From contig JASHNU010000075.1 of NCBI GenBank assembly GCA_030041475.1, positions 1 to 64,000 of the forward strand: a stretch of DNA of 64,000 nucleotides. Reading direction: 5' to 3'. The notes under the pieces are model-generated. The model did not search any database, was not told where the DNA came from, and was given only the letters and a program-made list of their open reading frames with translations. This document shows positions 3,352 to 3,404 of this stretch, piece after piece (position 1 is the first letter of the stretch; every line of letters begins with the position of its first letter). The DNA is from Candidatus Sulfotelmatobacter sp. GTDB taxonomy: Bacteria; Acidobacteriota; Terriglobia; Terriglobales; Acidobacteriaceae. A program made the translations under genes and the position numbers.

Positions 3352-3365
3352 GTCAAACCGTGCCG
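3352..3365. repeat. Left target-site duplication (14 bp, GTCAAACCGTGCCG) of casposon-like element
   Basis: Identical to 16104-16117; each copy directly abuts the outer end of a terminal inverted repeat. Confidence 0.85.
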
Positions 3366-3404
3366 GGGTAGGTGTATACCGACGGCAAAATGGACCCTCC
3401 CCCC
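3366..3404 (+). repeat. Left terminal inverted repeat (39 bp)
   Basis: GGGTAGGTGTATACCGACGGCAAAATGGACCCTCCCCCC; exact reverse complement of 16065-16103. Confidence 0.9.

What the first reader, a model, noticed from the sequence alone, without database searches (positions are those of the whole stretch)
3352..3404. Ends are base-exact: 39/39 inverted repeat with a 14/14 direct repeat abutting both outer edges
3366-3404 is the exact reverse complement of 16065-16103. Immediately outside, 3352-3365 = 16104-16117 (GTCAAACCGTGCCG). The symmetrical solution gives exactly 14 bp, the size expected from Cas1-type staggered integration. Sequence-identical ends over 12.7 kb suggest recent insertion, upstream of valS.
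Basis: seen in the sequence. Interest (0 to 1): 0.8.

Follow-up and report, generated by a model that had tools for sequence, protein, structure and literature searches.

The report
Casposon that inserts at gene promoters
The exact repeats mark the two ends of a 12.7-kb 'casposon' (a jumping element whose insertion enzyme is a relative of the CRISPR enzyme Cas1) in a soil acidobacterium; comparison with relatives shows that this bacterial casposon lineage inserts precisely at the -35 box of host gene promoters, keeps the promoter intact, and stacks copies there like a CRISPR array.

Summary
[quoted passage not shown] It is a casposon in an Acidobacteriaceae genome.

The window's element is defective: cas1, the genome's only one, lost its 3' half including the catalytic D..E, and polB is frameshifted.

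New point: in relatives, TSDs end in TTGAC, followed 18-19 bp later by a -10-like TAnnnT (9 of 14 independent sites, P about 5e-11; and 9 of 10 TTGAC-edged ends in genomes not used to form the idea). This lineage inserts at the -35 box of presumed sigma-70 promoters (valS, thrS, rplU and others). The duplication restores the promoter, and elements stack in tandem. The valS promoter is a hotspot (13-16 of 30 loci in the genus).

The class is known; promoter targeting, native non-autonomous copies and the acidobacterial lineage appear undescribed in the papers available here. Whether the casposase reads promoter DNA or bound RNA polymerase is open.

The parts
414..3236 (-). valS (valyl-tRNA synthetase), the host gene whose promoter was hit
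   Evidence: 940-aa ORF; identified by eye as ValRS; same gene downstream of casposon sites in L097, L101, L105, L106
3327..3332 (-). putative -10 box of valS (TACACT), 19 bp from TTGAC
3352..3356 (-). putative -35 box of valS (TTGAC), the promoter-side edge of the TSD
3352..3365 (.). left TSD GTCAAACCGTGCCG
3366..3404 (+). left TIR, 39 bp
3445..5043 (-). cargo ORF: PEGA and trypsin-like protease with a C-terminal DUF4435/AriB-like part; lies in the place of the lost cas1 3' half
5034..5351 (-). DUF3761 secreted protein ORF, joined to the broken end of cas1
5374..6198 (-). cas1 (casposase) remnant: residues 1-275 of about 512; keeps catalytic E and H, lacks the D..E (DLME), zinc ribbon and HTH
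   Evidence: PF01867 8e-29
6426..6815 (+). DUF4258 protein, MqsR-like toxin candidate
6806..7465 (+). MqsA-family antitoxin (zinc finger plus HTH)
   Evidence: TIGR03830 1.5e-17
7499..8224 (-). uncharacterised coiled-coil protein
   Evidence: one homologue in a related element, L119
8305..8844 (+). HTH protein conserved in related casposons (12 of the elements compared)
8841..9137 (+). small HNH-type nuclease (CxxC...HH...HH by eye)
   Evidence: weak Pfam matches only; homologues in 4 related elements
9074..11185 (+). family B DNA polymerase, N-terminal part (exo and pol motifs A-C)
   Evidence: 74% identical to the intact 975-aa PolB of L093
11139..12092 (+). C-terminal part of the same PolB, split off by a 1-nt indel in an A5 run near 11151
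12466..15993 (+). large secreted TIG-domain beta-propeller protein (cargo)
   Evidence: PF01833; a 26%-identical homologue lies in the J067 region
16065..16103 (-). right TIR, 39 bp
16104..16117 (.). right TSD GTCAAACCGTGCCG
16118..16155 (+). solo end (TIR class C) of an older casposon in tandem; partner end not found
   Evidence: score 20 against a 99% null of 18.5; same class beside other valS promoters (L212, L200, L228); no partner

Best explanation
3366-16103 is a casposon: a Cas1-integrated, PolB-encoding transposon. It belongs to a lineage common in Acidobacteriaceae whose casposase integrates the element at the -35 element of sigma-70-type promoters. A staggered attack 14 bp apart puts one joint just inside the -35 box (after TTGAC) and the other 14 bp upstream. 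Gap repair then duplicates NNNNNNNNNTTGAC, so the promoter-side copy keeps the promoter intact and the same site can be used again, giving promoter-anchored tandem arrays. Here the promoter is that of valS. The copy in this genome is now defective (cas1 truncated, polB frameshifted). It and a 1.8-kb element with identical ends were presumably moved by an intact casposase, either before the damage or supplied in trans. Shown by sequence: TIRs, TSDs, gene content, broken cas1/polB, the TTGAC and -10 pattern, tandem sites. Inferred: that the motif acts as a promoter, that Cas1 is the integrase, the order of events, trans mobilisation.
For: Exact ends. Cas1 and PolB; best PDB match of the intact relative is the M. 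mazei casposase 6opm, 6e-22. Second element with identical TIRs and its own TSD. Related elements with 14-bp TSDs. TSD edge TTGAC, 1.0-1.4 bits per position at -5 to -1. TAnnnT at 18/19 in 9 of 14 independent sites, against a mean of 0.27 and maximum of 2 over 81 control offsets and 3% of all TTGAC in the same loci, P = 5e-11. Downstream genes valS, thrS, rplU and others, read in the direction the motif predicts. Test ends from genomes not used to form the idea (16, after removing one repeat site): 10 have TTGAC at the TSD edge and 9 of those a TAnnnT box, the tenth abutting another TIR; 4 more begin GTCAA as distal ends should; 2 do not fit. valS hotspot. 14 element sides abut another TIR.
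Against: No experiment shows that the TTGAC/TAnnnT motif is a promoter or that this Cas1 integrates DNA. L126 and L186 (both genome G155) and L260 do not fit the spacing. Some sites are promoters of the same gene in different species, so they are fewer than the raw count. The broken cas1 and polB rest on one draft assembly; the polB break is a single A in an A5 run.
Confidence: 0.85

Rival explanations
1. The casposase recognises only a short sequence (GTCAA at the TSD edge plus unspecified leader bases) and the promoter match is secondary: insertions are seen at promoters because insertions elsewhere are lost by selection, or because GTCAA with a spaced TA is its motif for other reasons.
For: M. 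mazei and A. boonei casposases use a short motif at the leader edge of the TSD plus a motif 9-17 bp into the leader (PMC6977970, PMC6614799), the same layout. L126, L186 and L260 lack the standard spacing.
Against: All TTGAC in the same loci have a TAnnnT at 18/19 in only 3% of cases, against 9 of 14 target sites. Spacing varies between 18 and 19, as promoter spacers do. Downstream genes lie in the predicted direction. Neutral intergenic sites with GTCAA are not used.
Confidence: 0.25
2. The element is intact and active; the cas1 and polB breaks are assembly errors.
For: Perfect 39/39 TIRs and 14/14 TSDs fit a young, working element; the polB break is one base in a homopolymer.
Against: The cas1 change is not a simple indel: the entire 3' half (about 220 codons) is absent from the window and from the genome and other genes stand there.
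Confidence: 0.07
3. The TIR plus TSD is one dispersed repeat family and the 12.7-kb interval is not a mobile unit.
For: The TIR is found at a second locus in the genome.
Against: There the 14-mer differs and flanks both outer ends; no other copies exist in the genome; relatives with the same architecture have their own TIRs and TSDs.
Confidence: 0.01
4. The unit was inserted by some other recombinase and Cas1 is a passenger.
For: Cas1 here is broken, and the mini-element with the same ends has no Cas1.
Against: No transposase or tyrosine/serine recombinase among the element genes. 14-bp TSDs and leader-edge specificity are casposase hallmarks (PMC6614799, PMC6977970). Related elements with intact cas1 and polB have the same ends.
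Confidence: 0.04

Closest known systems
Casposons, family 3 (bacterial; Krupovic et al. 2014, PMC4046053)
   Same: Cas1-solo, PolB, HNH and HTH genes, TIRs, TSDs, bacterial host; some family 3 Cas1 proteins carry a C-terminal zinc-binding domain and HTH (AceAut-C1), as the intact relatives do here
   Different: Family 3 was described from Streptomyces, Henriciella, Nitrosomonas and Acetothermum; no Acidobacteria and no promoter targeting are reported in the papers held here. Its sequences were not at hand, so assignment is untested.
Family 2 casposons (Methanosarcina mazei MetMaz-C1, Aciduliprofundum boonei AciBoo-C1)
   Same: 14-15-bp TSD, conserved bases at the leader edge of the TSD, specificity from the adjacent leader, host gene left intact, tandem insertions (PMC6614799, PMC6977970, PMC10359463)
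   Different: Targets are 3' ends of tRNA genes, not promoters. Acidobacterial casposases form a separate clade with a zinc ribbon before the HTH.
Engineered mini-casposons (M. mazei, PMC10359463)
   Same: TIRs flanking non-casposase cargo, moved in trans, forming a tandem at the TSD
   Different: Here the mini-elements are natural: 1.8 kb in this genome, 5.6 kb in L260, 3.2 kb in G272, 2.8 kb in G289.
CRISPR spacer acquisition by Cas1-Cas2
   Same: Leader-anchored insertion that duplicates the adjacent repeat, so new units add at the leader side
   Different: 14-bp TSD, no Cas2, whole transposons inserted, and the promoter points away from the array

Membership tests
Casposon superfamily | Cas1 not associated with CRISPR | tested here: met
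   cas1 at 5374-6198 is the only cas1 in the genome, though truncated
Casposon superfamily | B-family DNA polymerase gene | tested here: met
   Exo I-III and Pol A-C motifs conserved in 13 relatives; split by a frameshift in this copy
Casposon superfamily | Terminal inverted repeats | tested here: met
   39/39
Casposon superfamily | 14-15-bp target site duplication | tested here: met
   14/14; same length in relatives
Casposon superfamily | No other integrase or transposase | tested here: met
   Pfam and NCBIfam on the element ORFs; one HTH protein has a weak match to transposase HTH domains only
Casposon superfamily | Casposase integrates TIR DNA | not testable with these tools
   Needs biochemistry; this copy lacks catalytic D..E, relatives keep E, H, D, E
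Casposon family 3 (bacterial) | Cas1 branches with family 3 casposases | not tested
Casposon family 3 (bacterial) | Zinc-binding and HTH domains fused to Cas1 in some members | tested here: inconclusive
   Four invariant cysteines and a C-terminal HTH in the intact relatives; occurs only in some known members
Casposon family 2 (euryarchaeal) | Cas1 within the family 2 clade | tested here: not met
   Family 2 sequences form their own clade (support 100); acidobacterial sequences lie outside it
Casposon family 1 (thaumarchaeal) | Protein-primed PolB and compact Cas1 | tested here: inconclusive
   Relatives' Cas1 is long (about 510 aa, zinc ribbon plus HTH), unlike family 1; PolB type was not resolved by profile or PDB search

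The most novel reading that the evidence does not exclude
A bacterial casposase lineage uses sigma-70 promoters as its attachment sites, cutting at the -35 box so that the duplication rebuilds the promoter, and guided either by promoter DNA or by promoter-bound RNA polymerase. Promoters of essential genes such as valS thereby become stable docks on which casposons and defence-carrying non-autonomous derivatives accumulate leader-first, as in a CRISPR array.
Probability: 0.7. Interest if true: 0.82.

Novelty: new variant of a known kind. Interest (0 to 1): 0.75.

Why it matters
Casposons are the proposed source of the CRISPR adaptation machinery, and how Cas1 came to insert next to a leader that is itself a promoter region is an open question. 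A large bacterial lineage whose insertion site is a promoter, with the duplication starting at the -35 box and units stacking on the promoter side, offers a natural model of that step that can be tested in vitro. It also gives a large set of natural target sites, natural non-autonomous casposons, and casposons carrying defence-like cargo (a SIR2/ThsA-like gene in the tandem neighbour).

Tried and rejected
Dispersed-repeat explanation: rejected. Loose matches to the target motif in the host genome are chance: 56/54 against 53/57 for the reversed pattern. Viral and plasmid homes for the casposase: IMG/VR gave no close relative and one remote Cas1, plasmids none. Pfam and PDB searches with PolB were uninformative; motifs were read from an alignment instead. 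A first Cas1 tree held two wrongly extracted ORFs and was discarded; it was redone without them. The acidobacterial clade itself has low support (53) there, while acidobacterial, family 2 and the archaeal Cas1 4n06 together have 100. The partner end of the solo TIR at 16118 was sought and not found. The 2016 casposon mobility paper (PMC4779613) is not held, so native non-autonomous casposons may be mentioned there.

Full report
OBSERVATION. 3366-3404 and 16065-16103 are exact reverse complements (39/39), and the 14-mer GTCAAACCGTGCCG abuts both outer edges. The genome (4.63 Mb, 112 contigs, 99.6% complete) holds this TIR at only one other place, C58:38767-40573. There 39/39 TIRs bound a 1,807-bp element flanked by a different 14-mer, CCACGCCGTTTGAC, on both sides.

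WHAT IT IS. The 12,738-bp interval encodes Cas1 (PF01867 8e-29), a family B DNA polymerase, a small HNH-like nuclease, an HTH protein, an MqsR/MqsA-like pair and cargo, and no other integrase. That is the casposon gene set (PMC4046053). Named relatives found by Cas1 are Acidobacteriaceae MAGs. Among 399 genomes of the family 48 have a close Cas1; in a phylum-wide sample the only close hit outside the family is G518. The intact relative's best PDB match is the M. mazei casposase 6opm (6e-22). In a tree, acidobacterial casposases group with family 2 casposases and the archaeal Cas1 4n06 (support 100), apart from the other CRISPR Cas1 sequences.

THIS COPY IS BROKEN. Intact relatives have a Cas1 of about 510 aa with E180, H263, D275, E278, four invariant cysteines and a C-terminal HTH. 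The window's Cas1 matches only residues 1-275. The rest, including D..E, is missing from window and genome, and a DUF3761 and a protease gene lie there instead. PolB, 975 aa in L093, is split by one extra A in an A5 run. No other cas1 is in the genome. Perfect ends with broken genes suggest movement shortly before the damage, or in trans (inference).

TARGET SITE. In 24 or so related elements the TSD is 14 bp and its promoter-side edge reads TTGAC. Next to it, 18 or 19 bp further on, lies TAnnnT: TACACT at valS here, TAGACT at rplU and thrS, TAAACT, TATACT, TAACAT and so on. Over 14 independent sites 9 have TAnnnT at 18/19; control offsets give a mean of 0.27 and a maximum of 2. All 573 TTGAC in the same loci have it in 3.1% of cases, P = 5e-11. 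Information content peaks at TTGAC and at the T and T of TAnnnT. Genes start downstream in the predicted direction: valS, rplU, thrS, a Ser/Thr kinase, a DinB-like protein and others (gene names from sequence by eye).

TEST ON OTHER GENOMES. After the idea was formed, a different TIR class was searched and 17 ends came from loci not used before; one (L287) repeats the L110 site and is set aside. Of 16, ten have TTGAC exactly at the 14-bp edge (background 1.5%). Nine of these have TAnnnT and the tenth abuts another TIR. Four begin GTCAA, as distal ends must. Two fit neither. Some of these are the same genes as before in other species.

HOTSPOT AND ARRAYS. Of 45 genomes in the genus 33 have the valS promoter motif. 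Of 30 such loci, 13 have a TIR matching known ones exactly 8 bp upstream of TTTGAC under a strict cutoff; three more carry an end class seen beside L105. The others look empty or unclear. Fourteen of 60 element sides abut a second TIR. Examples are J067 (two complete casposons sharing TSDs at valS), J076, and the window, where 16118-16155 is the end of an older element. The C58/C34 site reads promoter-TSD-B-TSD-mini-TSD if the two contigs join, which is inferred. This is leader-first stacking as in CRISPR arrays; tandem casposons as such are known (PMC6563490, PMC10359463).

NON-AUTONOMOUS CASPOSONS. Besides the 1.8-kb element: L260 (5.6 kb, RHS-like cargo and a polB piece), G272 (3.2 kb, identical TSD on both sides) and G289 (2.8 kb), from genomes in which no close cas1 was found. 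In the papers available here mini-casposons are described only as engineered constructs.

MECHANISM. Shown: exact TSD register at the -35 box and promoter-like spacing. Inferred: casposase attack just inside the -35 box and 14 bp upstream, gap repair, a rebuilt promoter. M. mazei and A. boonei casposases likewise need bases at the TSD edge and a motif inside the leader (PMC6977970, PMC6614799); here the leader motif coincides with the -10. Whether Cas1's HTH reads the DNA or bound RNA polymerase guides it cannot be told from sequence.

LIMITS. Promoter function and integrase activity are untested. L126, L186 and L260 depart from the rule; in the first two the -10-like box is one helical turn closer. 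Family assignment within casposons is open. Draft assemblies limit claims about the broken genes and array joins.

Noticed in passing
L056:4764-5342 (C34), inside tandem element B: SIR2-like, ThsA-like gene start (PF13289 7e-9; PADLOC ThsA 7e-14): defence-type cargo on a casposon-type element.
   Followed up: partly
L126 and L186 (genome G155): TSDs without TTGAC, but TATACT/TACACT lies 8-9 bp from the TSD edge, about one helical turn closer than in all other sites.
   Followed up: no
L008:7714-8457 (mini-element): HNH-type domain followed by a P-loop NTPase start that is cut short near the right TIR; looks like a captured fragment of a larger gene.
   Followed up: partly
L260:4787-10393: Non-autonomous casposon with RHS-repeat protein ORFs and the 3' part of polB in place of cas1.
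   Followed up: partly
L089/L012 7556 and 16560: TSD GTCAAACTGAGGGG at a valS promoter-like site on both sides of a casposon whose left TIR is not recognisable; the right side abuts another TIR.
   Followed up: no
window 9074-12092 and relatives: The casposon PolB has all exo and pol motifs but is missed by Pfam and PDB profiles; a divergent PolB branch.
   Followed up: partly
window 6426-7465: MqsR/MqsA-like toxin-antitoxin pair inside the casposon, a possible stabilising module.
   Followed up: no
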